Below, in pieces: positions 6,601-55,381 of a stretch of DNA of 64,000 nucleotides. The position numbers were made by a program, and so were the translations under genes. Each line of letters begins with the position of its first letter. The stretch's first letter is position 1. Under the pieces are notes generated by a model that was given only the letters and a program-made list of their open reading frames with translations, did no database searches and was not told the origin of the DNA. The stretch is taken from assembly GCA_964036665.1 (NCBI GenBank), contig OZ038528.1, positions 186,001-250,000 on the forward strand, in the 5' to 3' direction. The stretch is from Gordius sp. MW1 (taxonomy: Eukaryota > Nematomorpha > Gordioida > Gordea > Gordiidae).

Positions 6601-9600
6601 ACGAGGAGGAAAAACAAATTAATGTTTAAAATGTAAAGAGGGTTGGTTATCATGAATATTAAGTTTGTTGGCTGTTTCTCTAACATAAAGTCTTCAAAGA
6701 GACATAAAGACATAGGCTTGGATAATTAAAAATCATAACTGTTTTAATGTAGATATATATTATCACCATACTAGAGAAACTAAGTTATTAACATGTTTCA
6801 ATAATGTTTGCGGAAAATTTCTAAAGTTACCATAAATAATATGTAAATAAGGGGGAAATGTAAATGCACGTCTCATTCATTATATTATAAAAAAAATAAA
6901 TCATATTAATTCTTATCTCCAACTATAGGTGTAATAAAGGAAGGATACGGACCACCATTAACATCCATGAGCAGGGGCATTTCTCACAGCCATCAAGATT
7001 ATGGGGCGAGGCTCAAGGGAAATGTCGAGTCTGACGGGCGTAACGTGAAACTTTACCTGAAGTTGACGCACATGCTAGCTAGTCGACTGTTCGATCGTCG
7101 AGATGAACAAAGCCCTGGCACTTTAAAGAGCAAGAAAGTGGGCCGGACTGAAAAAATGCCTTGGTTCATTCGAAAGAAGAAGTCACGGGGCAGAAGGATT
7201 CCTATGATTAATATGACGTCCCAAACTAATTTAGATCCGCCCCTAAAATACGCATATTTCAAGCGCCAGGTTATTAGGGCGGTAGAGAAGTCAAATTTGG
7301 AGGTGCCGAAGGAAGGAATCGTCGATAAGAGGGGAAGGAGGATTCGGGTGAACAAACACCGAATTTTACCGAGGCCCCAGCAGGCCGTGGTTCGACCTCC
7401 TTCTCAACCTTCGAAAGAAGAACAACTTTATAGCCGTTCATCGAGTCCTAGGGTGTACCACGATTCCCTACTAAGTAAGTACTACGGTAACAAGGATAGC
7501 CTGGATTTATTGCCAAACAACATGCTATATCTTCGACAGAAACAACAACAACCTAATATCGTGGGAGATGGGAGACCGTACCAGAGCAGTACTTCGATTA
7601 CTCTAACCTTCAATACGGTCATAAACGGGGTTGAACCTTCAATGCCGGATGAGGATGTCAGGCAAAATACAAATTCACCCATTCCATATGCCTGGCTTAC
7701 AAACGTAGTCAGGACTAATGACAACAATACATCGTACCAAAGCGCAGTTGTCAGGCCAAGGATCTTGGCACCGAGAGCATCAACTAAATCAGCGGGCACT
7801 CGTCCGGAAATTAATAAAATTATGATTTCGAGTGTGGATACAAAAACCACTAACATTCAAAGAAATTCCTTTTACCCACGAACAACAACACGGTATCCAG
7901 AAATCGCGAAATTCATCCAATTTCCATCATCGATCATGCGTAGAAACCGGCCCTCTTTCACTAAAACCACGACAATGGGTAATCGATTGGTTAGTGTCAG
8001 AAATTCCCATATATCCGGTTTGAGAAAAAGTGTGATCGTTACTCCAAAATTGCTAAGGTCCGCTGTGTTGAAGAGGTATAAAATTGTCAGGGTACCACAA
8101 GTACCGCCACCTAGAGAGCAACCATTTTTAAAATATCTCGCTCCAGGGCCGAGAATGATGAATGAAGGGGAAAGTTTGTTGAATAGTAACGTGTATTCGG
8201 CAGAAAATCCTAAATTATTTCAAATCATAAGAGCACAAGCAATTCAAACCACGACTCGGGCGATTGAGAAGATGGTTAAAGTGGAGGCAAAGCCAGGTGT
8301 AACTACTTTGATACAAAAGGAATTCAATCAATTTAAAATGGCACGTGCGCCCCCACGTAAAGGATCATCAAAGAAAGTGGGAGATACCGAGGCCTATCTC
8401 GATACGGCATTAGCTTTCGGGAAACCCGTGGGTAAAATTAATTACAGTGAGGGTATGATGGATATGCTGAAATATGTGAAAGACGAAATGAGACATGACA
8501 TTAAAGTTGGTCGGGGCTTGGGTTTGAATAATGAAATGAGGAGAAGATCGGGGAAGAAGTATAAATACAAAATTGAGGCGGCTACCCATTACTTAGACAA
8601 CGCCTTAAATTTTGGAAGTCTCAAAGATGGGCAAAGTGATTATGAAATCAATCGTAACCTCACTGATCCCCAAATCCCTTACGTAACATCGTTTATAAGT
8701 TTGTACAATAGAAGAGGATACTTGCCAGGAGCTAGTGTTGGTAAGGGTGTTAAATATTCATTGAGGAAGAGGAAAGTTATAGAGTCAAATAGGAAAAAGC
8801 CAGCTTCTTATTCCAGGTACAGACATCCTTTAAATGATCGTGGATCAAGAGTTGGCATTTTAAGGAGGCAGTATGGAAAAAAGGTTGCTGATAGAAAAAA
8901 ACAAGATTACCTCAATTCAAAATGGCAAAATAATGATTCAAAGGTTGGAAAAGATTATGCAAATAGTTATATATCTAATAGCCCTTTGATAGCAAAAACA
9001 GAAGAATTTGTTCAGTTAAAAACCACAAAAGTATCTCCCACCCTTTTCATGCTTAAATTAATACCAAAAGATGAGTTTTCTGGAGCACGTCTTATGACTA
9101 ATATTGTTTTATCTAGAACACATTAAAGGGTTCAAATCTAGTTAATAAATTATTCAATAAATTTTTATATATTGTGCCATTTACCAAATTGTATTACATT
9201 GTTAAATATTTTTAAAAATGCCAATAAATAATGATAATACCTGAGAATGCTCCAATATGTTGAGTTATTCCGCCAAATTCCTTATCCACCATTGAAGTTT
9301 TTCTAATCTGATCTAATAAAGTTGTTTTCCCATGATCAACATGACCCATTATTACAACAATAGGACATCTTCCTTTAAGATATTCTTTTTTAGGAAGGGG
9401 TCTAAATGTCAATGAATGAAATAAATAAAAAGGCATACTTCCTCACAAAATCTTTTGTCTGAATATTTGCCATAACATTAGTTATATTACTTTGAGCCAG
9501 TACTGTTTTGCACCCAAAGACTTTGAATATTTGATTTAATAATTTTGGGTCATTAATATCTGTTTTATAAGTAGGCAGCAATTATATTATTACTATCTCT

Positions 9601-11793: not shown

Positions 11794-14039
11794 TAAATAT
11801 ACCTGTTGTTGAGTATTTCCTACAATATGGCAGCTCTTATGGTGTATGATTTTAATGGTAAAAATAAGCTGTTCGCATTTTATGGTTTTTCTGTGCCTAA
11901 ACATTACCATAGATGTCCAGCAGTTTAAAAATTTGTAAAAAAATACTCAGTTGTAAATGCTACTATCGCACGTTTAGTAAAACTCTTATTGAATTATAAC
12001 AGTACTAATCAATAATAAAAAAATATTCAAAATTATCTTTAAATTTCAATATATTTAATTTTGCCAAATTTAATTTTGCATTTTCATCGTGATAAGCAAA
12101 ATTCCTGATTAATTAATTAAATGTGAAAATAGAATATATAAAGATTTTGCATAGAAATTAAATTTAGAATATTATTGTAGCAATGGATAAGGTAATCTTG
12201 TCAGATACAAAAAATTTTAATAGATTTACCAAGAACCTTGATAAGTTGAAAGACATAGGATAACTGGCTAAAACAAATCGCAACTTAAAAGACCGGATCA
12301 AAAAATATTGACAACGTAGAGAAGATTGCGCAATTAAAAATGAGATTTTTAATTAGGGGAGATTTAAAATTTTTAAGGCATATAGCAAAATTTTGCTTAT
12401 TTTCTTGTCATCATGTAATCGGTCCCACCGTCGGGGGTTATATTTTGATGAGTTTCATCCATCTAGATCTACATCATCATTGTCTACTTGCCAAGTGTTT
12501 TGATCTTGTATGGGTCTCGAAGACAAAATCTCATCTCGTCATTTATGAAAGTCTAGTATCTCGTCTCGTGTTGGCCTAAAAATCTCTTCTTAAAATTTTT
12601 ACTTATTTAAATTATATACAAATAATAAAGGTTCTTCAAAATGGCGAATTACAAAATATTTTATGAACATGTCATTTTCTTGTTCGAACTAGATGGGGCC
12701 CTTAGTTAGCATTGTCAAAATAAGTAACTTTAGATAAATAAATTTGAGAAAAAAGTTTATAATCTGTTGTCAGTTCGTTGATAAAGAGTTTACCACATGT
12801 TAATTATATTGCTATAGAAACTTTAAAGGTACGTTAATACTTTTTACCATTATTTATAATAGAGGTAGTTAGTTGCACAAATTGAAACGTTGTAAAAGCA
12901 CCTATAGAAGTGGCATTGTAACGGGAATAGAAACATAAGAGTTTTAAGGATTTCACAAAGTTGCAATATAATTTATAACAAATTGAACATTTAAGAGTAA
13001 GCGATTATATCCCAAACTATATACTTAATACATTTTTTTTTTAAATTGCCGTGAAAGCGTTTTTATGTAGCTTATGCTTATATATTATACTGTAGTCCAA
13101 AATAGTACAATTCAATGGATTACAGCTCACCTGCCAACCCTACTTTCGAGCATATTTTATTATATACGGATGTTTTATATACGGATTCTCCCACTATTTA
13201 ATTGTACAAATGTTAAAAACTCCCCCCCCCCTTCTTTCTTTATACATTAATTGTAAGTTCGTTAATTGTGAGATTACTTAGCATTTTCGGATACCCCTTT
13301 TGATCTTACACGCGTTAATTAATATAACTCGTACATATATAACATCTGCTGTATCCCATACACTTCGAATTTCTTATACTGATTTTAATATATTACATGT
13401 GTGTTACTTTTCCTCCCCCCCCACGCGCTTGTACGTGTTTGTTAATTTTATCGACACGCATCAGTGAATTTTGTATATGCGTACACAACGCGTATTGTAT
13501 CGATAGCTTTTTATAAATATTCATTCTTAAGAGTTTTTATTCCTTAGTTTTAGCATAGTAAAATAAATAACCAAGATGTAAAGAAAGAAATAAAAGTATA
13601 TTGTTGCGTACGCGGTGGAGTCTTTTAACCCTTTTTCCCCTTATCTGCCGTCCCCCAATATATCCCCCTATTAGCCACAATTCTCCCAATATATCAATGA
13701 TTCCCCTTCAAATTTTACCCGCAGACCTTTTCTTTATTCCGCGCGGAACATGATACCTACATTTATAATGTCAGATGTAATATAAATGGCATAAAATGCA
13801 TATTATGCCTTGATAATATTAGAGGTGAATGAGTTCAAGCACAACAAACCCCTGGTAGACTCATTCTTTAATTTAATGTTTTTGAAGGCAATCGTTCGGA
13901 AAGCTCAGAGGTCGCTGAGGGTGCTCAATATCTTTTAATTAATGCCAGAAATAAATATACACTAAATATATTAAAATTTTACATGCCATAGAGGCCGGAG
14001 AAGTAATTGAGATTCTTCTAAGATATTCCGAATCCCTCC

Positions 14040-15470
14040 TTTTACGTGATGCGAGGTCGTCCTCTTACTCTTTTCACCGGCACCTCCATGTCCAATATTT
14101 TTTGATCTACATCATTCGTCTCCCTTCTTAGTATATGCCCATAACCCCTTAGCCAATTTTTGTAATTAAGTCCGCCATAAATTGTATACCCATTTTAGAT
14201 CTGATAAAGTCATATGGTCGAGCCTAGTACACTCCAAGCTCCACCGTAGAATTCCCTTCTCCGTGTCCTGCAACAACTTTTCTTCTGTGACGTTTAACGC
14301 CCAGGTTTTACTTCCATATAGTAACCGTCTAACGATGGATTTGTAAGCTTTGCTCTTCAACCATATTGGCATTTTCTTGTCGCACATTGCACCGGATATA
14401 CTTCGCCGTTTAAGACATCTTTATCCGGGCATGGACTTCTGTTGCACAACGTACCTGCTGATGTAACATCGCGCCGAGGTATGTGTACCTGTCAGCTTTT
14501 GGGTCTTAAGATGGTCATCTAGAGATTGGATGCCTATAACGTTTATTTCTTTTATACCGTTTTTTGATCGTTGACCTTTAAACCATTCCAGGTAGTGCGA
14601 AGATTGGATCAATTAGGGATTCGCCGTTCACAAATTCGAATTTTAGATATTTCCACCTCGCTTATTAGCCGATATTTCCACCTATTTTTTTTTAACCTTT
14701 TTACTAAGATCCTGCTTCAAGGATCAAGTTAGTTTCATAATCTCTGTAATTGCCAAGGTCCTGAGGGTCTCCTTTGCCTTTAAATAAGGGTATATTTGTG
14801 TTTGCTCTCTATTTATTAGGAATTTGCATTCTATCAATATCTTGTAAAAAAGGTTGGTCATGGTCGTGACCCTTCTATCCGACCCATGCTTTCATAGGAT
14901 TCCATATGGGGCATTAGCTTTTCCTTTTTGGGTCTTGTTCATTTGTATCCCCTGAAGAGTTCGACCATAATCATGTTTGGCTCAATATCGGGAAGGGAAT
15001 ATTGGTCATTTGCAATATTTATACGTTCAGTAAAATATCCTTTCCGCTTCTCCATCACTATATTCGTCGTGAAAGATTTGACCCTTTTTGTATATGACTA
15101 TTTTAAGGACTCCGCCTTTATCTCTGCAAATTTGTGTATAATCCTGTCGCCCCCTTTAAAGTTTATTTACCTCGGTGTACGCAGAATTCTTCGCAATTGC
15201 AATGGCCTTTATCGCGGTTCTCTATACTCTTAATAATCATGCCGACTTTTTTGATTTGTGCCACCGTTTATAGAATTTTTCTTTCTTTTGATGAAATCAC
15301 TAACCAATTGATCCCACCGCCATAGCTCCCTATTCAAAGCTTTGCATCATTTGGTCTGCCCAGAACCTAAATCGCTGTTTCTTTTATGTCCTTAGTTAGC
15401 GTCTCCCAATCGTCGTCTAAGCCCCTTTGAAACTTTACACCCAAGAGTGAGGACGCTTTTTGCTTTAGCG
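14040..15470 (-). pseudogene. Decayed non-LTR retrotransposon (LINE ORF2 3' part)
   Basis: Minus-strand translation shows the C-terminal part of a LINE reverse transcriptase polyprotein in broken frames: a segment with LLYGSKTWAL near 14330, then RLDHMTLSDL near 14210, and at 14040-14140 the terminal GHILRRE ... RVRGRPR motif. Upstream at about 15370-15430 is a linker with LTKDIKETAI and an in-frame stop. Stops and frameshifts interrupt it throughout. A related 3' end lies at 26640-26760. Confidence 0.75.
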
Positions 15471-16417
15471 TTTCGTATCGAATTTGAGGTTCACACCCTT
15501 CTTTATTCGAAAATAATAATTATGTAATCGATGTGCAAAAGAAAAATCTACATGCCTTTATAAATATAATTATATATTTAGACAAAAAGAGGATTAATTT
15601 TATTTTATTAAATGTAACGCGAGAAGATATTACGACGAATAAATTACGTAAATATAAGAAGCGAAGGGGAAGAAATATGGGAAAAAGTTTTGGACGCGTG
15701 GATATAAAACAAAGGGGTTGGGACTTGGGAGAAATTTTTAGCTTATTTAAGACGAAAATTAAATTATGTTCTTAAACGCCGTCTTCTAGTAGAGGGAAAG
15801 GCGGGAAGGACAAGGTCAAGAGTGATTTGACATATCGCAGCTTAAATAAATCGCAGAAGGCTTTGTTGTTGAATTACAGGCTAAATATCGTCTGCTTTTC
15901 TTAATTAAAATATCATTGCCCCCTAAGTTAGGTGATTAAATCTGCTTTTCTTTTAGCAATTAGGGTGAGGTTCAATGGGAAGATAAGACAACTCGTATAT
16001 TACAAATATGACTTAATCTATTAACTTTTTGCTTCTTATGAAATTGCAACAAAATAAAATTGCTAAAGATTTAAAAAAAAATCCTTCTTGAGACTGGCTG
16101 CAAGTTAATAACGCCCCTCCTAAAAAAAGGTTTGATTTCTGCAAAAATTAGAAAATTTTTAATCCTACCATGCCCTAAATAAGTATATTTTTATGTCTAT
16201 AATAATAATCTAATGCTAAAGGATATTTGCTAAGAAATATAAAAAACGCTATAGCTGCCCTTGCTAATCACAAACCTCTTTGTACAAATACTTCGCAAAG
16301 TTTTAGAAGATTAGAGAATTTTAAGCTGACAATGAACCCAAAAACATAAATTATTTGACTATAAATATGTAAGATAATGCACGGCAAGTGAGCGCAGACG
16401 ATTTAAATCTGGTTTTA

Positions 16418-19400
16418 ATGGGCGATATGTTGTATGATTTAGGCGTTGATGATGAGACACAACTAAGCATTATGCTCACAATTAATCGCTTTCTATCTTC
16501 GGATGAAGCAAAATGTAAACCTAATTACATACATTTTATAATTTAACAGTGAGTTTTCCTACGTCTTTAATTAGTAAAGAAAGAAGATTAGTTCACAAAC
16601 TTTGTGAACATTTTGGTTTGACAACTAGAACCTTAGGGTAAATTTAGGCTAGGATTTTTTCTATTTAATTTGAAGAAAAGGCTCTGGCCGTTTCGTTTTA
16701 TGTGTCAAGGATGAAAGCTTATTAAAAATTGATGAGCCTAATTCATTTACCTTATCTCCTCATACTATTCAACAATTATTACAATTTTGTCTAAGTTACC
16801 CATTAAATCACAAAGAAAGGTTAGAATTGCTAGTAAGGACAGAAAAATTTGGAAATCCTCCACCAGATGGTAAATATTTTAAATCATTGTGAAGAGTTTT
16901 TAATCAGAAGTGGATAAGAACAAGGCTGTTGGAAGAATAAATATAGGATTGGCCTTAGTTCCAACTTGTTTTCAATTTAATTATACAAAAGATCCAATTA
17001 GCTTATCCAAATTAGATATAATTAATTCAATTAATACCTATCAAATTACATTAATATCAGGAGACAATGGAGTTGGAAAATCAACACAGGTGAATTTCGC
17101 AAGATTTATCACAAAAATCATTTATATTGAAAATATTTTTATGATTTCATTTTTGTTTGATATTGTTATAGGTGCCAAAATATATTCTTGAATTTGCTCA
17201 ATCTCAAAAAAAAGCTGTTAGATTGGTTTTTATACAAAATAGTCGATTATTAGCAGTATCCATGGCAGAAAACTTAGCTTCACAATTAGCTGAAAAAGTT
17301 GGTCAAACTGTAGGCTATCAAATAAGGCTTGAAAGCAGGTGAATGAATATATATTGTAATATATTTAACATATATTGTGTACCCTATGATTACATAACGG
17401 AAAAATGAATAATTAATTGCTATGCAATTTATGGGTATTTACTACATTTAACATGATTTAGTTAATAAGACAATAATTATTATAAATTAATTACCTTTTT
17501 AATTGAATAAATGGCTAAAAAATTTTATTTAATACTGTACCTTTAGTTAAGTTGAAAAATATCCTTTATGTATGTATAAGAAATATAAGTTAAATGGCAT
17601 TCCAGCTTAAAAATATGAAAAAAACATTAGATATAATGTCAATAATGTTAAGCCTATATGCTTACCTTTATTTTTATGGTATTTCTTTTCTAAAATATTA
17701 TGCATTGTATAATTTTATTATTGTCATCACCATTACATGTGTATGTTTTAGAGTTTCGCCAACTACTGTTCTTACGTTCTGCACCCCATGGGTATTTTTA
17801 CGTAATTTAATAAGTATGGATCCCGACATTTCTCGCATTACACACATCATTATAGTAAGTAGCATATGCTTTAATAGGTCTGTTGGAATGGAATTATTTT
17901 TCACATTTTGATAATAAATTGCTTAAAATTCCTTTAGTAGAATTATTTCTTTTTTTTTTAAATATAATATACATTATTTTAGAGGGTCAGTTTGGGTTAA
18001 ACTTTAGATTAATTATAAAAAGGGTTCTAAGTACTTATGTCATCCATCCCGCTAATTTTAGAGGATTCCTTCACATCTTATAACATCATATTTAACACCG
18101 ATCTCGTAAGGTATTGCAACAATTCTCATTATACTACTCTACATATTCTTGCTATATTACTACACAGGATGACGTGGATTGCAGGGTCAAAGCTGTCGAT
18201 TTAATCCTGGTTTACCTGAAGCTCTCCATGTTACCCAAAAACAAGGCTATGAAATTAATTCTCCTCTCCTCCCCACAACCCTACACCCAACACTTATTTC
18301 AAAAATACTTTGCCGCTTTCAGTACAACTCAGCTCTTGAACGGTAGTAGTTATTTCATTAATATGATTAATTTATTTATTATGTGCATTTGATAGTGGGT
18401 AAACAGATGGATTGCAAAAGAGTGACCGAAATGTTTCTGGGTCAAACCTTACAATAGTAATTTTTTATTTATTCTGTATACACGGGCATAGCCAAGGGGA
18501 CTTACAGGGAGGGGCGGCTGCCCCTTTTAATAAAGAATTTGTTGAAATTTATTCAAAATGATCATTTTGCCCTTCCCAAATCATTATTGCCCCCCTCTAA
18601 TTTCAATGCTGGCTACGCTCAGTTTATATATTTATGCTAAATACTTATTAATACCTCGTGTTATTTCAATAGTGTGGGGTTGTTGAACGATGAATTGCTG
18701 ACTTTCACGAAGGCCATACCTACGCGTAATGCTTTTATCAACACGACTTAATTTGCGATAAATATAATATAATCACTTACATATTATATGAAGAAATATC
18801 CTATTTATGTCAAAGGAGCTCTGACATTGCAGAAGTTGCGGGAAGTTCTCTCTTTTCCCCACCAATCCAACAACGCCCATCGCCAAGACAGGCGAGACAA
18901 GTTGAAGGATACCCCCGCTCTCGCGGCTCTCCTTAACTTTTTCACCACTCATTACAGAAATGCCGGAGAATTTAAGGAAAAATTGGACAAATTCCTCCTC
19001 ACGGTACCGCTTTTAATTAATTTTTATTGAAGAAGTGTAATGTACGTAATATATTATATGGTAGAGGAGGGATAGTATAAGTCAAAGTTCTTCGTCTCAA
19101 GTTTCGCCGTCCAGCGGAGGCGATACCACCCACAATAAATCCGCCTTATTCTTCACGTATGGGAGCAACGGAGGGGGTGATGATGACAATAATCGAGGTA
19201 TTCAGTACCCGTATCATAACATGCACCCCATGTTACCGGGCCTACTTGATGCGGCTATGGAAGAAGCCTGGTATTTCGAATGGTCTCTTAACACCAACCC
19301 CCCAACTGGCCCCGCCTCAACCTCTTCCCCTTCTCCCATCGGCACACCCCGGAGTTGCTTGGATGAGTGCACTAATACTATTACCACAATCAACCAAAGG

Positions 19401-22400
19401 CGCCGTTACCTGGACGCGCTGCTGGAGATATTCATGGCGTACGGGATAGAAGGTTGTTAGACTAGTGTTGTAAGAACGGCTGGGTGGTTTCGTTTGGTCT
19501 ACCTTTGGTTTTAGTCGAGTAAACATAAACAGGCACCAAAGGACTTTTTTGTCTGTTTTTTTTGTCTGTTTTTTTTGTCTGTTTTTTTTGTCTGTTTTTC
19601 TTAATCGCATCAATGGACCAAATGTTTAGTCGACTAAAACCAAAAGTCGGCTAGACAAAACCCAGCCCTTTTTACGCCACTAGGTTAGACACACGCGCAA
19701 TTTATTGCTCGCTCACTCATTAATTTTGCGTGTGATTGATTAGTTGATAGGGCTCATTCGGTGTTGGACGTGACGTTGCTCATGATGTGTTCGGGGTTGG
19801 GGCTGTGTAGCCTCGTGGAAAAATTAATATACTACGGCGCAAATCAGAATCGATATTGTTACCTCGACGGATCCATTCCAACCGATTGGGCTTTAGCCTT
19901 CGATAAGCCTGAAACGGTTTCCTTGCTACAAACGTTCAAGTAAGACCCACCCATTCTTCATTAAACCTCAATTTTGCACATATTTTATTACGAATGTAAT
20001 ATGAGAGGTTCAAAAAATGATGAATTCTGAAAGATTATTCATGAAGAACTAAGTGATTCCGGTCTCTACTTGTTTAAAAATTCTATTTTAAAAAACGTAG
20101 TATCATGATATTGTTTATCAGGGGTGCGGGCTATTTAGATTCCGTTTAAGTTGTTAACCAGGATAAGGGCGTTTGGTATATAAAAATTTTAGTTGAAATC
20201 ATTTTTATTTTGCCATCAAGCATGTTTACAATGCAATTTCCATATAATACTAAACGTAGCTACAAAACAACATCTTTAAAATATTATATTACGAATAAAA
20301 TTAAATTCAATGTTGTGACTTTAAAGCGCTTGGATGTGCAGAGTCCTCATTGCCTCGTAGACAAATTAGGAATTACATCTCTCCTTGTATTTATATAATA
20401 TATATAGCGTTTTACTATCTTAAAATGATGGCAACCTTCCTTAAGGGATATGATGGGGGAGATGGCATTCGAAGAAGCTCGCCTACTACTCGATAACATG
20501 GATGAACCGGAAAATTTGCTGGAACCGCGTTACACCCATCTATCCATGGCACGTCTATATTATGAGAAAATTCATTTCAACAACATCAACAACTTCAATG
20601 GGGGCCAACAAGGACTTGGTGCCCGGGATCTCTTGCTCACATTAATTATCAACCTCGTGAACGAGCTCAACTTTCAACACAACCAGCAGCAGCAATCGGC
20701 TAAAAAAGGTGATAAGTACAATTTAACTCTACCATTGTTTGGTCAAACAAGATTATGGTTCAATGTAGTTTAGCGTTAAGGTGGGCATTACTTGTTTACG
20801 AATTAAACGAAATAAGATTGTAGTTGTGGGGGGAAAAATGGTTTATGCTAAATTGTGTGTTAGTTTTTGTAAATGGTAAAATAAACTGTCTAACAGGCTC
20901 CAAGTGTATATTGGTTTTCTTGCCCACGTGCGACGAAATCACGCGTACTAAAGAAGCCCTACTCTCAGATCCGGTTTTTTCTGCAGCAAGTTCTCACAAC
21001 AAGTACCATCAAGTCTTATGTATATCATCATTTAATTGAATGAGAATCTTGTATGAATTTAGCTTAGTGACTTCTTTTAATATAATTAATCGCAGGGTGC
21101 GCGTATACGTTTTGTATCGCGAGATGGTGGCTTCGGATCTCAAGCAAATCTACCAGAGCATCGGGGACGAGTGCGTGAAGCTTGTAAGCACCTCATCCCC
21201 CCCCTCCCCATTTTAAAATCTCTTTTACCTATTATTTTTTTGGTTATTTGCAATCGAATACATTTACGGAGGATTTGTCTATACTTACACAATTGAGGCG
21301 GGTTTATTATAAAGTAATTTAAGGTTTTCTTATTAGCTCCTTATAGCCAAAATACCACTAATTTTATCGATGTTAAATATTAAGTAATCTACTTTATTGT
21401 TGCCTTATAAAATTTATTTTTAAAATGTGATAGATATTGGCTACGGATATTGCAGAGACTTCGGTTCCCATCTCAGACATCGCTTACGTCATCGACAATG
21501 GATTGGTTGAGAAGGTAAATGAAACTTAGTTTTCATTATAATCTAACAAAATGAACAAATTTGTAATTGCTTAATACTTACCTTTAATTATTCCCCTCCA
21601 TCAACCTATTGTTCTCATCTTTTGTTAAAAGATTTCTGCCATAAAGTATTACTCTGTTATATTGACGATAAATTCTTATGTCCACTTGATAAAAACGTTT
21701 TGTAATTATAAATATATGTATCGCTTAATTAGCATTTTTTGTCTCTTCTTTGCATCCAGGAAATGTACGATTGTAAAAATAATGCTTCGAGGCATGGGTT
21801 GTGCTGGTTATCGAAAGAAAACTACGAAAACAGAATTAACGTGTAAGTATATCAAAATAGCTCATCATGATCAAGCATAACTGTTTGCATCCCTCCAAAA
21901 ATAGGCTGAAAAAAGGTTGGACATCTGCTACTGGATCACCGGGTTTAATTTGTTTTCGGCTCTACACCGAACTGCGGGCATCTCATTTGATCGAACGCTA
22001 CCCCAGCCCCTTTTCCCTCGGTTCTTTGAGCGAATTACTGTTACAAGCAAAATATTTAGCCCCCCTCAATTCGTCCCTTCAAGATTTTTTGGGTAAAGCC
22101 CCGGAACCCCCTTCAAATTCCGTCATGCGTTCAATGGTACAACATCTTAAGGTATGTAATGTTACGACATGAAGACACGGTGTTTTGCTTTGACCCTGAT
22201 CTGATGATAACCCATGCTAATTAACTTTGATTTGTTTAATTGTGTTAACGTATGAATGAAAAGTCAATGTTTAGGATAAATAAGCAAAGGACTATGATGC
22301 AACTAAAACATTTTCTTTATGATTATATTGCCCCCGTGTTGAAGCACTTGAAAGGTTATGATTATATTGTGGAAATGTTGAATTGGTTTGATTACAATAG

Positions 22401-25400
22401 GCGTTGGATGCGTTGGACGATTGCTTGGATTTGACGGAATTGGGACAACACCTGGTAGATATACCCTTGCACCCTTGTTTGGGTAAGATGATATTGCATT
22501 CCATCGTGTTGAAGTGTTTGGATCCCGTGTTGACCATCGCCTGCGCCCTGGCTCAACCCGCTAAATCTAAGAGTCCTTTCGTGACCCCTTCTATCGCCAC
22601 TAAATCTTCCATCATCTCCGTCAAGTATCGATACTCCGAAAAAACCTTCAGCGATCACATGATTTTACTCCGGGTATTTCAGGTAAATACCCTTCTTTTA
22701 TTTAACCCTTAGGGGGCTTATTAATGTTTTGGAAACGGCTGGCGTTTCTTTGAGCGACCTTTGGTTTTAGTCGACTAAACATCAAACTGACCAAATGTTT
22801 TTTCGTCTGTTTTTCTTAGCCGCATAAATAGGCCAAACGCTTTTTGGTCAAGCCTTTGGTCTATTTAGGTTTAGTGGACTAAGGTCGACCAAACATAACC
22901 CAGCCGTTTGTACAACCTTGGTCTTCCAATGTATATAACGCAGGGTTGGCAAAAAGCGAGGGTGGACGGGTGGGAAAAGCAATTTTGTTCCCGTAACGGT
23001 TTGTCCCCATCTAATTTGGATGCCATATTCACCCTTCGAGCCCACATCCTCGGTCAACTGCGGGCTTCGGGTTTGGTGAGATCACGTGGATTCGGGGATA
23101 TACGAGATCTCAACATTAATTCCGAAAATTGGCCTGCCGTCAAAGCGGTACTGTGTACTTCGTTGTACCCCAACTTAGCCCGGGTCATTCATTCCCGTAA
23201 GTGAACATACTTATTTTACTCTTTAATTTTCTTAAAACGTCCAAATTTATGTTTAAATTTAGCGCAATTAGATACCCTGCAGAACCCAGATGAAAAGGAT
23301 AGAATCGAGATGGGAGAATTGTTACTGGGATTGAATGTCATATTATTGACGGTGTGTGGAGGCAATGCGGGTAAAGGATCTGCCCTTTCCAATTCTTCCC
23401 CCCAAACCGTGAGAATTAATCAGAAAAGTCCCCCCACTTTGGGCACCGACAGTGATGTATACAATGAAGAATCTTCCCTATCAAACTATCAGCTTTCTCA
23501 AAATAGCACCACGTCTTTGTAAGTTCATGTACTGTACCAATATTCTCAGCATTTTTTCTAGTGACCTTTTAAGGATGTATTACAATAAGGGGGGGGGGGC
23601 GTAGGCAACGAAAATAACTTTAATCCCTAAATCAAAAATTTTGGTTTTCGTTCACATTATTTATTAAGATGAGAACTATATCCATGAGTACAAAATAATT
23701 TACAACGAATAACACTTATATTTGCCCCATATCTTTGCACATTTATGACTCACACATGATACATTTATCACATATATACTTTCATGTCCAAGGTGTGAGC
23801 GCAAGGTTAAATTAGGGCCCGAAGTTTGTTTTGCCTCCAATAGCCTAGCTTCTTCTGTTAGCCTCAAATCCAATCGTTCGTTCGGTAACAACAGCCTATG
23901 GGCTACATTTTGTCCTTCGGATTGGATCATTTATGATTCTTGCTTCCAGCTCAAACCATTCCTCGACGAAGGGTCCGGGACTGGTAACGGTAATCTTGGG
24001 AAAAGTCATTTCGATTGTAAGGAGGTTCCTCTAGGGTGTGCCGGTTATTTACAAGGTTGCACCCTGGTTTCTCCCATAACCGTTCTCCTGTTTGCGGGAC
24101 CTAATCGGACGCCTAAAGAATTTGTACAAGATATCGAAAATCCGGAAAGTAAGTATCGTCCCCTTCTCATCCATTCCTGTATTAGAATTAGAGAGGGGCA
24201 AAATGATCATTTTTTGAAAATTTTAATAAATTCACCAATTTTTTGATTTAGAGGGGGCAGCCGTCTCTTCCTGCCCCCCACCCTGGCTACGCCCATGTCC
24301 ATTCCATTAATTAAAGTTGGTATCGGCCTACCGGTAAATCCCTATCATTATCATAGGTATACAAAATATAGCGGGGGTAATGGTAGAAGTTGAAAGTGAT
24401 AGTGGCGACGATTCGGATCACAATCAGGCAGGGAGCAATCGGGGTGATGATAACAATAGTTCCTGTGCAACACCACATCCATCTTCGAAGCAGCAACGCT
24501 CAATCACCCTCACCACCGAACTGAAATTGGATGAGGGATTGGTCTTTCAAAACGACTTAGAGGTATTACGTAACGTTCTTCACCTTAGGCAAAAGTATCA
24601 TTCGCTCGTTTTAAGGCGATTGAAAAACCCTTCAAAACCTTGTTCTCCCACCGACGAGGTAAGCAAATCACATATATGAATTTATCAAAATTAAAATATA
24701 CGTTATTTCATTGAAAATAAAGACGACGCTGAAGATGGTGATAAGCATTTTGGCTCAAGAGGAAAATGCGTTAGGATTGCCTCAACCCTCGGGTGTTGGT
24801 CAAAGGCCTAAACCAATGTCGACTGAACAAAGTAATAACAACAATACCAATAACGACGAGCCGCCCCTTCTCTCCTCCCCTCCAAATCCATCTTCCTTCA
24901 ACCCACATCAAAGAGGTACTACACATTAGTGTTGTAAAACGGCTGGGTTTTGTTTGGTCGCCCTTTGGCTTTAATCGACTAAACATAAACAGATCATAGG
25001 TTTTTTGATCTTTTCCTCTGAGTAGCATAAACAGACCAATGATTTTTGGTGAAGCTTTTGGTGTCTCTGTATGTATGGTCGAGTAAAATCAAAGGTCTAT
25101 TACACGCGCATTTCTTCCAATATTTTATTTCATTCCTTTATCGTTGCGCTGTTTTAGACATGATGGGTGCAATGACAAATCTTTCTCTTAACGATTCCGA
25201 TAATAGGAGTGCTCATAGCCAGGATATGGGATACTACAACAATCATGGTGCCTTCTACGATCCATCACCACATGTCTATTCTCAACAAAACCCTGCATTT
25301 GTTTCTGCTCCTGCCATTACGATACCACCACCACAGGCCCCTGAGTCCTCTTTGGTCAGATTTTATCTCATCAAACCGACGGTTAGCCCGGGTAGCCATC

Positions 25401-26149
25401 TCGTAGCAGGGGGTAACGCTAAATACATTCCATCCCCTTACCAAGTTCCCGCATCGGTATCCATGGGTACGCCCGATGATTATTGCAATTACCCTCAACT
25501 AGATCACGAAATTAAGAGAATCCTCGAAACGACTCATTACTTCAACCTTTCCCAAAACGTAAACACGTAATCCTATAATCAATCCTATCCTACATTTCAT
25601 ATTGCCATCCCTTAAACGTTTGTGTTATAAAGGATGAACAACTTTCTTTGTCCGGCAACTGTCGAGGTGTCAAGACCGTCATCGGGTTCATTTTCAACCC
25701 AGTGTCCAAAATATTTTTGGGGATCGTTAAATGTATGATCGTACAAGGAGGAGACGTCCCTAACCCCGGTCTACCACCCGCTCAAACCACTCTAAACACG
25801 ACGACGGCCATCGTGCTTCAATTGGACTGGATCGTGAAGTAATATTAATAACTTCGATAAATGCAGACCGATTTAAACTTTATTGATAATAAGTGGGACA
25901 TCATGATAAAAATACAATTATTATTTTATGGCATTCTATGAAACTCAGAAAAATGGTGGAAGTGCATTCAATCCTCAACGATCCTCTCACTTTAACCCTC
26001 CCACACTTGGAACCTATGATTCGTTCGAATCAAGTGCTATGCGTAAGTCCTAACCTTATTTTATTCACATGCTGAAATTTATTTGTTTTATCTTAAAGGA
26101 ATTGGATATTAACTTGGTGCCTTATCTTCTCAAATATTTTCAAGAATGA
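16418..26149 (+). CDS. YTHDC2: YTHDC2 orthologue with degenerate helicase and YTH motifs, 26 exons
   Basis: Orthologue of the meiotic m6A reader/RNA helicase YTHDC2 (Drosophila Bgcn family). Exons: 16418-16514, 16550-16637, 16676-16869, 16908-17089, 17172-17338, 17752-17854, 18168-18342, 18816-19003, 19065-19438, 19751-19939, 20446-20708, 20897-21002, 21096-21183, 21434-21514, 21760-21842, 21905-22151, 22401-22682, 22944-23196, 23263-23518, 23793-24148, 24357-24658, 24723-24915, 25158-25558, 25633-25838, 25949-26042, 26099-26149; 1672 aa (human 1430). Order: R3H (about 10-65), P-loop GDNGVGKSTQ (178-187), ankyrin (524-586), motif V TDIAETS (740s), HA2/OB (790-1140), YTH-like (1488-1672). Motif II reads DDVDCR instead of DEVHER, and motif VI lacks its arginines. 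The start is the first in-frame ATG after a stop; an upstream exon is possible. Exon 9 could end at 19452, but only 19438 keeps the frame. Confidence 0.92.
18481..18621. mobile_element. MITE family B copy in YTHDC2 intron 7
   Basis: Ends CACGGGCATAGCCAAGG and GCTGGCTACGCTCAG around G-rich and C-rich blocks; no coding content. Confidence 0.6.
19463..19682. mobile_element. MITE family A copy 2, YTHDC2 intron 9
   Basis: TAGTGTTGTAAGAACGGCTG at the left and CCCTTTTTACGCCACTA at the right. The centre holds an expanded 12-bp T-rich repeat (TGTCTG plus T-run, about 19541-19598). It sits 10 bp beyond the alternative donor at 19453. Confidence 0.78.
22721..22921. mobile_element. MITE family A copy 3, YTHDC2 intron 17
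   Basis: Has the GGCTGGCG / CCCAGCCG ends and internal TTTAGTCGACTAAA-type sequence of the family. The right end lies about 20 bp before the acceptor of exon 18. Confidence 0.65.
24181..24299. mobile_element. MITE family B copy, YTHDC2 intron 20
   Basis: The right end CTGGCTACGCCCATG and preceding C-rich block are clear. The left end is eroded to ATTAGAGAGGGGCAAAATG. Confidence 0.6.
24927..25095. mobile_element. MITE family A copy 4, YTHDC2 intron 22, right end eroded
   Basis: TAGTGTTGTAAAACGGCTGG starts 11 bp after the exon 22 donor. Internal palindromes are recognisable but no clean right terminal repeat remains. Confidence 0.6.
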
Positions 26150-26559
26150 AGATACCCCTAAAACCTTTTTAAGTATAAGTACATCATCTACGCGTCTATA
26201 TTATCTTCATTTAGGACTTAGTATTTCACCTTAACACGTATTACGCGCTCATTGTTATATCATATATTCAGGTACCTAGTATTTAACCTATTTAAACCTG
26301 ATCCACATAATATATTTGTTTTATAGACAATCACATAAGATATTAAATCCCTTCCCATATTCCATAATGTTAAAGACTGTCGCCCTCTATTTTGTTATTA
26401 ATGCCTTCGCACTCTATTACTACATAATCCATATTTATTCACTTTATCATATACATAAATTAAAAGTTTGTTATAATATATCTTAAATTCAACAAAATTT
26501 CGACTTTTAGTTTCTACTAGAACTTAACTTATATGTTATTCTTTTTATCATGTATTAAG

Positions 26560-26760
26560 TCTCAGTCGCGAGGTTTGTTTTGATAAGTTTCTCCATCTTA
26601 ATCGAGTAAGCGCCATTGATAAATTTTATGCGTTTTCATAACTTTGTCTACTTGCCCTCATGTGGGTCGTCCTCTTTATCTCTTCCTCGGCACCCCCCTG
26701 TACATTACTTTTCGATTTATATCATTCGTCTCCTTAGAATATGATTATTAGAGGTCAGTT
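26560..26760 (-). pseudogene. LINE 3'-end fragment
   Basis: The minus strand resembles the tail of the LINE fragment at 14040-14140 (LRRRRMI-like then RGRPT-like, with stops). The shared stretch TCATTCGTCTCC is visible in both copies. Confidence 0.5.
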
Positions 26761-27119
26761 TTATTTAAAAAAATTGCCTGAACCCGGTCTGATTTTATAA
26801 ATTAGCTGCCCGACCATGCCAGAATATTTAAATTTCCTAAGATTTTGTAGATTTTCTGCAAAATCGAATAAAATCCTATGTTATACTTTTATTACACAGG
26901 TATACAAATATTGACTTTCCAAGCACACATGAAGGGGGCGGGAGAGGAGATCAGGTGAAGGGAGATGTGTGAGTAAACATTGCGTAAGCAATATCTACTC
27001 TAATGTACTCCGTTTTCCAACCATAATGAGGATTTTAATAGGGGGAAGGGGTTCACTTAAACGCGAATAAATTCAAATGTAGAGGCGAATAAAAAAACTA
27101 AAATAATTGACCTATAGAT

Positions 27120-27798
27120 CAGTGGTTCTTAACCTTTTTATACACGCGGCCCCCCAAATATTTTATAATTTGTTTGCGGCCCCACATTTTTTCATAATAA
27201 TTTATATTTGTTATATTATCTATAATATATTGATTTTCTATTATTTTTTCATTTTATTATATAATAAACATATTTAAATAGATAATGAAATAATAATAAC
27301 ATAAAAACAATGTTTAAAATAATAAATATATGCATTCGGAAATATATTTAATGAGATTTCTGCTGCTGAACATCTTCAGCCAACTTGTTAATTCTTGGTT
27401 CAATTGATTGTAATGCTATCCTCATGCAGGAATCTAGTCGCAATCGATTGCGTTTTTTAGTTTTTATATCCACCATAGTTGAGAAGCCCTTTTCACACAA
27501 ATATGTACTAGCGAAAGGCAGCAAATTTTGAATTGCTGCTGAAAATAATGGAGGATATTCTGCACGAATTTGTATCCAAAATTGCGGCAAACTTTTAGTT
27601 TTAAACAAAGATTTTAAATTGCAATCATTTATTAATTCTAATAATGAATCTTAAGGCAAGGAGTTCGAATCCCCTGGTGAGTATTTTTTCTAAAGCTTTT
27701 CTGAATATTTTTATTTTATTCTAAAAACATTTGGCGGCCCCCCGGCAAACTTTTCGCGACCCCCTAGAGGGTCGTGACCCCCAGGTAAAGAATCACTG
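27120..27798 (-). mobile_element. hAT transposon remnant, copy 2, with 8-bp TSD
   Basis: CAGTGGTTCTTAACC and AAAGAATCACTG termini are bounded by an exact CTATAGAT duplication at 27112-27119 and 27799-27806. A minus-strand fragment at 27608-27348 ([18 protein letters not shown] ... [10 protein letters not shown]) is the C-terminal part of the same transposase as in copy 1, better preserved. It is 679 bp, an internally deleted derivative. Confidence 0.9.
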
Positions 27799-29196
27799 CT
27801 ATAGATGACACATTAATCTACAGGAATAAATAAATATTTTTCAGTTTAAATTAAAAATGCTGTGGCAATGTAGCCTCAAAAAGGCTAAAATGGGCATTTT
27901 TGCACCTTCAACCTCGTTTATCTATAAAACAGGAAGTTTTGGGAAAAAATTAATAAAGATTATTGTTCAGCGCAAAATTTTCTATTAGAATTATAGGTCC
28001 GATTGCAGGATATTTTTTCTGTTGACCTGTGTACTTATAGGAATGAAGTGTTAATAATATAATAACTCCAAGCCCTATGTTATTTCAAATTTTTTATTAA
28101 AATAATCAAAATTTTATTAAACTATAAATATAATTTCGTCTTTCAAGGGTCTCACTTTTACAAAGATTAAAAAACTCCCTGCTTTAAAAAAAAGAAATAA
28201 GTATTTTTGAAGCTGGCTAGTTAAGGTTGAGGTTTGATCTACTTAATGATTAATTCAACATTTATTGTTACAGAAATCTTCGTTTTCAAGTTTTATAATT
28301 CCATGAAAATTAAAATATCTTACACCGGTTCCATTTTTTACATTTTTATAAAGTCAGTAGCAGTACATTCTAACTAAATAATTTTAAATATCCTTTATAT
28401 AGTGTTTCTTTACATCGAGTAAAAGTATTTTTGCTGTGGATATATTTTTGGCTTGAGTGAAATGTAAGTCGAAGGTGGACGAAAGAGGGAAGATCTAAGC
28501 TTATTAGATACATCGATGAATTAAAATGGAACGAGCTCAAGCGAATTAGAAAATAGATAAAGGAGCTGTTGATCATTTAGTTTGACAGATATAGGATAAA
28601 ACCTCATTTAATTAAAATTAATGATCGACCTAAAACAAGGGTACGCCACTGACGATCCCTTTTGTTATATAAGTGCAGTGCAACTTGTGTATTAGGAAAT
28701 AAAATGTGTTTGTTGATTATTACATCTCAATATATTTCAATTTTTTCTTAAGGAACGCTAGTATGTCAACCCCGGTAAAAAGTATTATTTTAGCATAGGT
28801 CATTTTGACACTTTTTTATAAATTTGAAAATTAACCCCACTAACTTTAATCATTAAATATGGCGCAAAGTGTAATTAATAACCCCTAAAAGTGCTACAAT
28901 TTTAAATCATTTGTTTTACCGTTTTACCCCGTCATCGAAGAGCCTGAAATAACTTTATTTAACAATTTTAAATAGATCATTTCAAAATGCTTTGCCGTTA
29001 AAATAATGATTTTCTTTTGAAGCCGACAAAAAAGAATTGTGGCTTGGTTGGTAGGATCGTAAAGAAAACGGCAATTGATGTGCAATACATCGAATCATAA
29101 GCAACAAACAAATCCATTTTATTGTGAAACTCAAGTATTATGAGGAGGAGCATATTGAACATATATGTTTGTGAATGAAATAGTGTTAAGAGGAGT

Positions 29197-30628
29197 TCAA
29201 TCTGAATGCAACCATAGTTTAAGCCTGTAGGCGTCGGCGCCGTTGAGGTAATAACGATACAATCTCTTATCCCGCACAAAACCCAATGCTTCATACAATG
29301 ACAAAGCTGCCTCATTACTAACCTCCGTCTCCAATACTACCTATTACATATTAGTTAAGAAGTGGCAATTTTATATGTAAATCATAAAAATGGGTTTTCC
29401 TTATTTTTACACAATCAGCTTGGTTGCCTTAATCATAGCACTTAGTTGTAAATAATGGTAACCATATCTTTACCAAAATGTATAAATAATAACTATATTG
29501 ACAAGTAAACTTTGCAAATCCGCGTTTGAATTAAGTTAGGCATGCAAAATTTTACTTCACAGTCACATACTTATGCACAATGGCCTCACCACTGGTTTAA
29601 TGCACAACAAATATCAAAATAAAACTTATCTCAAAATATTGATGGTAGATTCTAAGACTAAAATTATTTTACAATTATTTAATAAAATTTATATAAAGGT
29701 TCAATAAAACATAAATATATCAAAAAAACATACTCACACTTTTAAATGAGTGTTTGATAACTACATATACATAATTCTAATAGCATGCCTTGACCCAAGT
29801 TATTAACAAAGATATTACGCCATATAAACCAAAGATTTAAAATATAATTTTTTTAAATGTTCTACTAATATAAATATACTTGCAATTTTTATATTAAAAC
29901 ATAAATTACTTCATCACATCCCTTTTTAATCATGGTAATTATAGCTTGTAAAACCAAGTTTGTCCCTAAAGTTATAATAAAATAATTTTATAAAGAAAAC
30001 TTACAATATATATATAATTTGTAAGGATTGGGCATATAATTTACCAATCTTTTTCCTTCTAAAATCCTTATCAGTTGCTAGCATGGCAATATATCCCCTG
30101 TAAACAAGCTTCTGGGAAGCCAAACAATAATGCATTTGCTTATGGACATCTAATTTACAAACAATAGCACCAATACAAAAAATTTCATGCATTGCCTAAA
30201 AATTCAATATAATTTTATGCATAGTTATACCAAGAAACATAAATCTGGCCAATTATGGATAAAGTAACGATAAGTATAAATGGAATATGGTTCAGACAAA
30301 TCTTTGGTAATTAGCTTAATTATATCTGGCATTATGCTTTCAGAGACATAAGGTTTATATACAATTTCTGGATATTTTATTAAATTTCTATGCATTATTT
30401 CTTCAATAACTCTTAACTTAATGTCTTCAGCTTGAGACGGTTTTATGTTGCTTCAATTTATAACATACCTTCAAATTGGTTCCTTTTGTCATTAATGCCT
30501 TGTACATCAAACTCATTAATTAAGTTTGTTAGGTCATTTTTAATAGTATCCTCTATATAAAGATAGTCACTTTTAGTATTAACATCGTTAGAAGTATTAA
30601 CATTTTTACGCCTATTTTTTTTACTCAT
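29197..30628 (-). CDS. NAA30: N-alpha-acetyltransferase 30 (NatC catalytic subunit), 5 exons
   Basis: GNAT-family enzyme that acetylates N-terminal Met followed by a bulky hydrophobic residue. Exons, 5' to 3': 30628-30469, 30430-30231, 30195-30045, 29965-29910, 29340-29197, giving 236 aa with consistent phases. Exon 2 has the conserved Y-x-x-R-x-F-x-x-x-W-P-x-x-C-F segment. Exon 3 has [16 protein letters not shown] and the acetyl-CoA loop start RRKKIG. Exon 4 (56 nt) carries TNLVLQAI and KKGCDE. Exon 5 carries [27 protein letters not shown] and RLKLWL, the family signature. Introns 1 and 2 are 38 and 35 nt. A Gypsy element begins 180 bp upstream of the ATG. The N-terminus (about residues 1-60) is Lys/Asn-rich and not conserved. 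Confidence 0.94.
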
Positions 30629-30807: not shown

Positions 30808-31000
30808 TATTAGAGTTGGGGATCTTTATTTACTACAGACATGGTTTCGAAGCGATACATTAATAGAAAGTAAGTAAAAACGTGTATATCCAACGTATAT
30901 AATGCATTCCGCATATAACCAATTAACGATAATTTTATTGACAACACATTGGTAAATGACATATCCTCTGAGGCACTTCGCACTCCAATTACCTCTCTAC
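30808..31000 (-). repeat. 3' LTR of the Gypsy element
   Basis: On the plus strand it begins TATTAGAGTTGGGG and ends CTCTCTAC. It matches 34712-34905 over its full length with about 11 mismatches. It is the LTR nearest the NAA30 start codon. Confidence 0.92.
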
Positions 31001-34000: not shown

Positions 34001-34711
34001 ATCTTCGCGCCGGTATTATCGATACCGTGGCGCCGGTATCGAAGATGCATTGGAATAATTCGTTATTAATATATATATCTACAGTTAACACATCTAAAGC
34101 ATGTTTTAACCTGGGAATTCGGACCGGCCCAGGCCACGCTTCTCGTCCCGCCACCACGCTCCACGCTTCTTCGGACCCGTCTTGCAAAGTGCTTAGCCCC
34201 CCGTTTATCGTCTCGGCCGTTAACGCCAGCTCGCGTAGGCGGTCCCATTTGATGTCATTTTCTGCCAACAGTCTCGCCTGTAAGCTTCTATCGCGCAATC
34301 CTATAATGAATTGGTCGACGATTCTGTTCTGCAATTCTTCGTTTCCGAAGTAGCAGCTGTTAGCTCCAGCCTTGAGTCTATTAGAGTACGTGTCTATCGT
34401 CTCTCCCTGGCCTTGTCGGACATTTGAGAATTCATACCTCTTTGCCCTCGCGCATGAATTCCTTTGGAATTTTTAACCGATTTATAGCTTCTTCATATGT
34501 AATTCCTGTTAACTCTTGAGGTCTATAATCCTCTAGTATTAATTGGAATGCCTCCCCATCAAGGTTGGTTAATAATAGAGCTGCTTTTTGCTCATCTGTA
34601 TCCGTGTTATTGCTCCTTAGGAATAGCTCAAATTGTGTTATAAAAGCGTCGATGTTAGCCGTTGTTTTATATTTCTGCATTCCCGCGTAAGCTTATCCTT
34701 TACGTCGCCAC

Positions 34712-44226: not shown

Positions 44227-44380
44227 GGTTTTTAGCATGAATTACCAAATCCTTAGCGATGAACATTATTTACAACTTTAAATATTTTAAATTATCATTT
44301 CTAAAATGCTCAATATAACTTTTGCATTTATAATAAAATAGGCTTAAATTTTTGATGAATCAGTAAAGAGAAGGCAAGGT

Positions 44381-54480: not shown

Positions 54481-55381
54481 CAAGAAAATTTTAAAAATGA
54501 AAATTCCTAAAAACTTTTTGCCAAATTAAAAATAAGAAGAAAGGATTTAGGGGTGGCTCAAATAAAATTAATGATAGCTGTGCCTGCTATGCCCTAAAGC
54601 TTACTCTGTTATACAAATAAATTAATATAAACATAATATCAATCACAATGTACACAAACAACACCCACAAGAAGCTCTCGCAGTAGGATGAGAGGGGCAC
54701 CCGTGTGTTAAGTAAGAAGAGGATGAATATTAGCGTGAAGAGAGTGTGATTATGTCAAAGAAGGTAATCAAATATTTAATAAATAAATAATATGCTTAAC
54801 GGGGGGGGGGGGGCGAGCATTGCGTTGAAGAACAAGATCAAGGGAAATAATTGACCAGGACACTCAATCAAAGAAAGCTGAAGAGGTAAAGGACAAAAAT
54901 GACGACCAAAGAAACAAAAGAAATGTATGTCCATCCATGGTTGTTATTATGGTAGGATGAGTTGAGGTGTTGTGTGTGAAAGATTATAAAATATTAACCC
55001 TTTTATTTTAATATTGCTCTATGATAATACTGATGTAGCTAGCATGTCCGTCCACGAGAAAGATGAAAGGATAAAAAGTGAGAAAAGTTAATTAGCTTCT
55101 TTAAAAGACTAGTTTTGCGACAAAAGAGTTTTCCTTTCTTACGCTTCCTTAATAAACCGTCACACTCGTTTTACGTCAATCACTTTCCTGTCCAACGTTA
55201 ATTTACTACACATTAAATTATGAATAGTTGCGTGCTCATTTAAAATATAATTTAATTGAGCTTGAGACATTTTGGTGACAAGATACAACATCATGGATAA
55301 TCTTAGAATCAGATTTTTAATGATATCAAAAAATTATTTTTATGCTTTAGGATTATTAAAATAGTTATATGACTTAAAACA

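What the first reader, a model, noticed from the sequence alone, without database searches (positions are those of the whole stretch)
17040..21960. YTHDC2 orthologue that looks like a pseudo-helicase
The P-loop (GDNGVGKST) and motif V (TDIAETS) are kept, but motif Ia TQPRR reads IQNSR, motif Ib TNG reads TPW, motif II DEVHER reads DDVDCR, motif III SA reads SP, and motif VI QRxGRxGR has lost its arginines (KKGWTSATG). The segment after motif III is also shortened. Splice phases agree across all 26 exons and the flanking HA2/OB exons are well conserved, so this is not simple pseudogene decay. Drosophila Bgcn, the fly member of this family, is known to have lost key catalytic residues; this would be a comparable loss with a different residue pattern.
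Basis: partly seen in the sequence, partly recalled or inferred. Interest (0 to 1): 0.85.

Follow-up and report, generated by a model that had tools for sequence, protein, structure and literature searches.

The report
Hairworm YTHDC2 with dead helicase motifs
A parasitic hairworm carries a germ-cell RNA helicase gene, YTHDC2, in which the residues needed to burn ATP and the recognisable m6A-reading domain are gone while other parts are kept, so it probably works as a passive RNA-binding scaffold, as has been described for a related protein in flies.

Summary
Window 16418-26042 (+) gives 25 exons with GT-AG introns and one open frame of 1663 codons: a YTHDC2 orthologue (R3H, helicase with long insert, HA2). 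No frame of 12000-30000 offers replacement motifs, no second YTHDC2 was found in the 211.8-Mb genome, and ten other DEAH loci there keep the motifs they show. Orthologue-invariant positions survive in HA2 (60 of 72) more than in RecA2 (33 of 70). One detail fails: the region after motif III is not shorter. New here: the organism is a nematomorph; no recognisable YTH domain remains; METTL3, METTL14, YTHDF and YTHDC1 were not found while METTL16, METTL5 and the YTHDC2 partner MEIOC were (a VIRMA domain was found too, which speaks against a clean writer loss). Best reading: a single-copy, catalytically dead, m6A-independent YTHDC2 acting with MEIOC as an RNA-binding scaffold, lost independently of fly Bgcn. 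No expression data and no second nematomorph were available; function is inferred.

The parts
16418..26042 (+). YTHDC2-like gene, 25 exons, 1663 codons open (first Met of the model at 16418; stop at 26073-26075 if exon 25 reads through)
16466..16700 (+). R3H domain (residues 17-70, exons 1-3)
   Evidence: Pfam R3H 38.8 bits, cut-off 26.8; place
17060..17086 (+). motif I, GDNGVGKST (GxxxxGK[ST] kept)
17232..17246 (+). motif Ia, IQNSR for TQPRR
17780..17791 (+). motif Ib, CTPW for CTNG
18168..18185 (+). motif II, DDVDCR for DE[VI]HER (first codons of exon 7)
18267..18278 (+). motif III, SSPQ for SA
18816..20708 (+). insert between the RecA halves (exons 8-11), in the place of the ankyrin part; 27 of 63 invariant positions kept from motif III to IV
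20908..20931 (+). motif IV, ILVFLPTC
21443..21463 (+). motif V, TDIAETS (orthologues NIAETS)
21906..21935 (+). motif VI, LKKGWTSATG for QRKGRAGR: Gln and the arginines gone
21969..23196 (+). HA2 (winged helix, ratchet) and the start of OB, exons 16-18, best conserved part
   Evidence: HA2 60 of 72 and HA2-OB 39 of 52 invariant positions kept; Pfam HA2_N, HA2_C
24357..24821 (+). conserved C-terminal linker, exons 21-22, ending in GQRPKPMS
   Evidence: 25 of 33 invariant positions kept; place
25158..26042 (+). segment in the place of the YTH domain; YTH not recognisable
   Evidence: no Pfam YTH hit; 26 of 2000 shuffles score as high against a YTH profile; one Trp in the last 265 residues

Best explanation
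This is the only YTHDC2 found in the genome of a nematomorph (horsehair worm). Its two RecA domains are still recognisable but can hardly hydrolyse ATP: the catalytic Glu of motif II is Asp, its His is Asp, and the Gln and both arginine fingers of motif VI are replaced. The m6A-reading YTH domain is gone or beyond recognition, in a genome where the METTL3/METTL14 writer and the other YTH readers were not found. HA2, the start of OB, the C-terminal linker and, less so, R3H are still constrained, and MEIOC is present, so the protein most likely acts as an ATP- and m6A-independent RNA-binding scaffold with MEIOC in germ cells, bringing target mRNAs to decay or repression. Shown: motif losses, open frame, no second copy found, MEIOC present, writer and readers not detected. 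Inferred: loss of ATPase activity, RNA binding through R3H/HA2/OB, MEIOC partnership, germline role.
For: Motif losses against 120 of 120 (VI) and 118 of 120 (II) fetched orthologues. No replacement motifs in six frames. No second copy with the window protein or a millipede YTHDC2 as query; the only match to query residues 872-949 is this gene. Ten other DEAH loci of this genome (7 places) each show at least one intact motif, and DExH or QRxGRxGR in 9 of 10. Open frame over 1663 codons against simulated decay. HA2 keeps 60 of 72 invariant positions, RecA2 33 of 70, Fisher p 7.5e-6; a millipede keeps 58 of 68 and 57 of 65. MEIOC domain in three exons, C3:21312956-21313664. METTL3, METTL14 and YTHDC1 queries: no hit at E<=10; YTHDF2: one hit at E 1.4, a retroelement frame by eye; METTL16 (7e-42) and METTL5 (6e-10) found in the same search; METTL3 again without a hit.
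Against: No transcript or protein evidence. No other nematomorph orthologue was found, so selection is not shown by dN/dS. The P-loop is intact, so nucleotide binding may persist. A VIRMA N-terminal domain, from an m6A-writer subunit, was found (C8:6593718), so the writer complex may not be wholly lost; WTAP was not found, a weak negative. R3H keeps only 14 of 21 invariant positions and distal OB 6 of 14, Pfam OB_NTP_bind is under cut-off, and the branch is long (1.37), which fits general fast evolution too. Mouse YTHDC2 is reported to need its helicase activity (titles of Saito 2022 and Li 2022 in a reference list).
Confidence: 0.62

Rival explanations
1. Nucleotide-locked clamp: the protein still binds ATP through its intact P-loop (GDNGVGKS, first Asp of motif II kept) but cannot hydrolyse it, and so holds RNA in a fixed, ATP-bound closed state.
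For: GxxxxGKS, the first Asp of motif II and most of motif V are kept while the residues for hydrolysis are lost; Bgcn by contrast is reported as changed in motif I too (PMC5832417, passages).
Against: RecA motifs Ia and Ib, which contact RNA (recalled), are also changed (IQNSR, CTPW), which is odd for a clamp; no binding data.
Confidence: 0.17
2. A gene in early decay, in a phylum known for heavy gene loss; the protein has no function.
For: RecA2 and the insert have drifted far (33 of 70, 27 of 63 invariant positions kept) and YTH is gone; nematomorph genomes lack many universal genes (passage in PMC11603191).
Against: No stop or frameshift in 1663 codons and 24 of 24 introns GT-AG; 200 of 200 simulations at 0.05 neutral substitutions per site gained stops; HA2 keeps 60 of 72 invariant positions.
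Confidence: 0.08
3. Still a weak ATPase: Asp for Glu in motif II and other side chains near motif VI take over.
For: DDVD keeps acidic residues; motif V is nearly intact.
Against: Gln and both arginines of motif VI are gone and by eye no neighbouring arginine fits in register with the PG that follows; 120 of 120 fetched orthologues keep them.
Confidence: 0.08
4. Artefact of splicing model, assembly or code.
For: The model is mine, without transcripts; the start of exon 8 and the end of the gene are the least sure.
Against: Motifs II and VI lie inside exons with conserved flanks; no frame there offers the motifs; other DEAH genes in the assembly read normally.
Confidence: 0.05

Closest known systems
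Bgcn of schizophoran flies (PMC5832417, passages; Ohlstein 2000 is cited there and was not seen)
   Same: YTHDC2-family protein with ATPase motifs lost and no YTH domain; fast-evolving; partner of Bam, which that paper derives from MEIOC.
   Different: Bgcn is a paralogue made by duplication, changed in motifs I and II and without a clear R3H; here only one copy was found, R3H and the P-loop stay, and II, III and VI are lost; the genome has a MEIOC recognised by Pfam. Bgcn letters were not fetched or aligned.
YTHDC2 of nematodes, e.g. C. elegans F52B5.3 (PMC5832417, passages)
   Same: Sister phylum; no detectable YTH domain; divergent insert between the RecA halves; no METTL3/METTL14-YTH system (PMC8208822, passages).
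   Different: [quoted passage not shown] none was fetched here.
Canonical YTHDC2 of vertebrates and many invertebrates
   Same: R3H, helicase core with long insert, HA2, OB, linker ending in GQRP[RK]P; HA2-OB clearly on the YTHDC2 side.
   Different: 3'-5' helicase with YTH domain in most; motif VI kept in 120 of 120 and II in 118 of 120 fetched.
DHX36, nearest solved relative by sequence (5vha and others)
   Same: RecA, HA2 and OB order; 278 bits over two stretches.
   Different: No such long insert in the printed alignment; separate clade at 100/100.

Membership tests
YTHDC2 family | HA2-OB part groups with YTHDC2 rather than DHX36 | tested here: met
   100/100 split, 13 YTHDC2-side rows (this one included) against 3 DHX36 rows; long branch noted
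YTHDC2 family | N-terminal R3H domain | tested here: met
   Pfam R3H 38.8 bits, cut-off 26.8
YTHDC2 family | Long insert with ankyrin repeats between the RecA domains | tested here: inconclusive
   insert present and long (407 residues from motif II to IV), 27 of 63 invariant positions kept, but no Pfam ankyrin hit
YTHDC2 family | C-terminal YTH domain | tested here: not met
   no Pfam YTH hit; profile score reached by 26 of 2000 shuffles. Accepted members lack it too (nematodes, Hymenoptera, Diptera; PMC5832417 passages)
Active DEAH helicase | DExH in motif II | tested here: not met
   DDVDCR
Active DEAH helicase | QRxGRxGR in motif VI | tested here: not met
   LKKGWTSATG
Active DEAH helicase | P-loop GxxxxGK[ST] | tested here: met
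   GDNGVGKST
Bgcn subfamily | Changed motif I and lost R3H, paralogue confined to schizophoran flies | tested here: not met
   P-loop and R3H kept; nematomorph, one copy found
Bgcn subfamily | Loss of ATPase-critical motif II | tested here: met
   Bgcn letters themselves were not fetched
Bgcn subfamily | Acts with a MEIOC/Bam partner in germ cells | not testable with these tools
   a MEIOC gene is present; binding and expression unknown

The most novel reading that the evidence does not exclude
A lineage of animals, the hairworms, having lost mRNA m6A writing and YTH readers, keeps YTHDC2 as a single-copy protein stripped of both m6A reading and ATP hydrolysis: a second, independent origin of a Bgcn-like pseudo-helicase, working with an ordinary MEIOC. 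This would show that the YTHDC2-MEIOC switch can run on RNA binding alone.
Probability: 0.5. Interest if true: 0.72.

Novelty: new variant of a known kind. Interest (0 to 1): 0.58.

Why it matters
Whether YTHDC2 works as a motor or as a scaffold is open: two mouse papers are titled as showing a need for helicase activity but not for m6A binding (titles only), while fly Bgcn does without ATPase motifs. A second lineage that lost catalysis in the only copy found, with a recognisable MEIOC, would separate the effect of the partner (Bam against MEIOC) from that of the helicase and gives a natural set of changes to test. It also ties the decay of the YTH domain to a missing writer.

Tried and rejected
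Family searches of the genome for YTH and MT-A70 gave nothing but rang in no control genome either, so I did not rest on them and used protein queries with built-in controls. The genome tool scores only the best candidates (28 of 38, 32 of 57), so a weak second copy cannot be wholly excluded. The best non-window hit to millipede YTHDC2 (C1:1302367, 52%) was checked: its exon scores 135 bits to RNA helicase A/DHX9 and at most 84 to the 120 YTHDC2 proteins, so it is a DHX9/MLE gene. The only YTHDF-like hit (L038, E 1.4) lies in a frame that by eye is a retroelement integrase. A claim that a YTH fold persists was rejected: hmmsearch E 0.033 (whole) and 0.07 (stretch) for one sequence, hhalign probability 0.5%; the profile score 16.7 is reached by 26 of 2000 shuffles, and the best of 33 other segments of the same protein scores higher, 18.7. 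A whole-length alignment did not align the YTH part. A first tree was spoiled by a 42-residue Xenopus piece picked by mistake and by a long protist branch; it was rebuilt without both. The RBM46 query found RRM genes (best 76% identity, C2:13753987) and only a weak dsRBD hit elsewhere (E 0.69, C7), so RBM46 against SYNCRIP-type genes is not resolved. Two searches for a nematomorph orthologue in the protein collection showed none (best 120 of 470 seen, 92 of 92, lengths of about 290-925). Structure prediction was not run: the tool admits only proteins that the DNA gives letter for letter, and the spliced protein is not one contiguous reading. Literature: no paper of the held library has YTHDC2 with Nematomorpha, METTL3 with Nematomorpha, or YTHDC2, Bgcn and 'catalytically inactive' together; subscription papers are mostly not held, and Saito 2022 was not. 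The roles of motif residues (catalytic Glu, arginine fingers, RNA contacts) are general knowledge of DEAH helicases, recalled.
Full report
What is there. Splicing the window gives 25 exons on the + strand, 16418-26042, with 24 of 24 introns GT-AG and one open frame of 1663 codons. Exon 25 can read on for ten codons to a stop at 26073-26075 or splice to an exon that I did not find. Pfam finds R3H (38.8 bits, cut-off 26.8), Helicase_C (26.0, 23.5), HA2_N (23.4, 21.0) and HA2_C (33.4, 21.3) over cut-off; DEAD (17.0, 26.0) and OB_NTP_bind (13.5, 29.5) fall below, and YTH is not found. The best relatives in 5.8 billion proteins are YTHDC2 proteins, 32-40% identical over the aligned part (470 found, the best 120 listed and fetched). 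On the HA2-OB part (window residues 816-1057) the protein joins 12 YTHDC2 rows against 3 DHX36 rows at 100/100, on a long branch of 1.37.

The motifs. In the 120 orthologues fetched, motif VI is QRxGRxGR in 120, motif II DE[VI]HER in 118 (the other two have a gap), TQPRR in 119, the P-loop ends in GKT in 120. The window has LKKGWTSATG, DDVDCR, IQNSR and GDNGVGKST. Of 92 further, mostly partial, proteins 52 hold motif VI; the two with motif V but not VI are models broken there. A six-frame scan of 12000-30000 for these motifs printed no match. Ten other DEAH loci of the same genome, from seven places, show ordinary motifs: DEAHER or DEIHER in L044, L046, L047 and L049, QRxGRxGR in L041, L042, L045, L048 and L050, motifs I and Ia in L043. 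One detail of the finding fails: the distance from motif II to IV is 407 residues against 273-330 in 118 orthologues, so the region is longer.

Not decay. Of positions at least 95% identical among the other aligned proteins, the window keeps 60 of 72 in HA2, 39 of 52 in HA2-OB and 25 of 33 in the C-terminal linker, but 50 of 81 in RecA1, 33 of 70 in RecA2, 27 of 63 in the insert, 14 of 21 in R3H, 8 of 14 in the linker after it, 6 of 14 in the distal OB part and 2 of 5 in the YTH place; a millipede keeps 58 of 68 in HA2 and 57 of 65 in RecA2. HA2 against RecA2: Fisher p 7.5e-6; HA2 against RecA1: 0.0038. Simulated neutral substitution of this coding sequence, without indels, left no stop in 80 of 200 runs at 0.005 substitutions per site, 25 at 0.01, 5 at 0.02 and 0 at 0.05. 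I infer that the loss of motifs is old compared with any time the gene could have been free of selection. This is indirect: no second species was at hand.

One copy. The window protein and a millipede YTHDC2 find only this gene at high similarity. Other places reach at most 54% over short exon pieces; the strongest of them (C1:1302367, E 4.6e-18) is DHX9/MLE by score (135 bits against 84). Only this gene matches query residues 872-949. The tool scores only its best candidates.

Whose genome. Contig C12, 14,798 bases, carries COX1, which reads in the invertebrate code and is 95% identical to Gordius sp. VVA-2019, 87% to Gordionus alpestris, 81% and 80% to two other nematomorphs, and at most 67% to the rest of the 120 listed. 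The organism is a nematomorph; the species is not known to me.

m6A. Human METTL3, METTL14 and YTHDC1-YTH gave no match at E<=10 and YTHDF2-YTH one at E 1.4 that is a retroelement frame by eye, while METTL16 (E 7e-42) and METTL5 (best exon E 6e-10) came up in the same search (query layout). METTL3 gave no match again. WTAP was not found, but the N-terminal VIRMA domain was, which speaks against a clean loss of the whole writer complex. Nematodes, the sister phylum, lack this writer-reader system (PMC8208822, passages). The last 265 residues have one Trp; 104 of 105 orthologues in which a pattern for the first YTH strand was found have a cage-type Trp within 40 residues. The segment's score against a YTH profile is reached by 26 of 2000 shuffles and passed by the best of 33 other segments of the same protein, so a YTH relic is possible but not shown.

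Partner. The MEIOC domain is present in three exons on C3, matching profile positions 6-164 of 166; two of the three pass the cut-off.

Reading. The simplest account is a pseudo-helicase scaffold that binds RNA through R3H, HA2 and OB and works with MEIOC. In the passages that I read, Jain et al. 2018 (PMC5832417) report loss of ATPase motifs in the schizophoran Bgcn paralogues and intact motifs I and II in nematode YTHDC2, so the loss here is most simply independent, with a different pattern. [quoted passage not shown] If the hairworm protein is active in germ cells it would be a second lineage that does without.

Noticed in passing
window 16418-18342: Third-position GC is 0.15-0.34 in exons 1-6 and 0.42-0.77 in exons 7-25, a sharp step at the exon 6/7 border, just before motif II. 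Cause unknown.
   Followed up: partly
G000: C1, C3, C4, C5, C8: 24 of 25 COX1 matches lie outside the mitochondrial contig C12, among them a full-length one on C8: many nuclear copies of mitochondrial DNA, or mitochondrial reads built into chromosomes.
   Followed up: no
window 30813-34692 (-): Open frames that by eye are pieces of a Ty3/Gypsy-like retroelement.
   Followed up: no
window 6910-9123 (+): Open frame of 738 residues without any Pfam match at E 0.001; a 469-residue frame precedes it at 5175-6581.
   Followed up: no
window 61360-63771 (-): Open frame of 804 residues joining a cyclic-nucleotide-binding domain with BTB and BACK.
   Followed up: no
window 53968-54525 (-): Forkhead-domain gene.
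   Followed up: no
window about 2757-9442 (-): Frames that read like mitochondrial translation initiation factor 2 ([18 protein letters not shown], name recalled).
   Followed up: no
window 44348-46616 (+): Leucine-rich-repeat protein followed by a frame with a likely transmembrane stretch, by eye.
   Followed up: no
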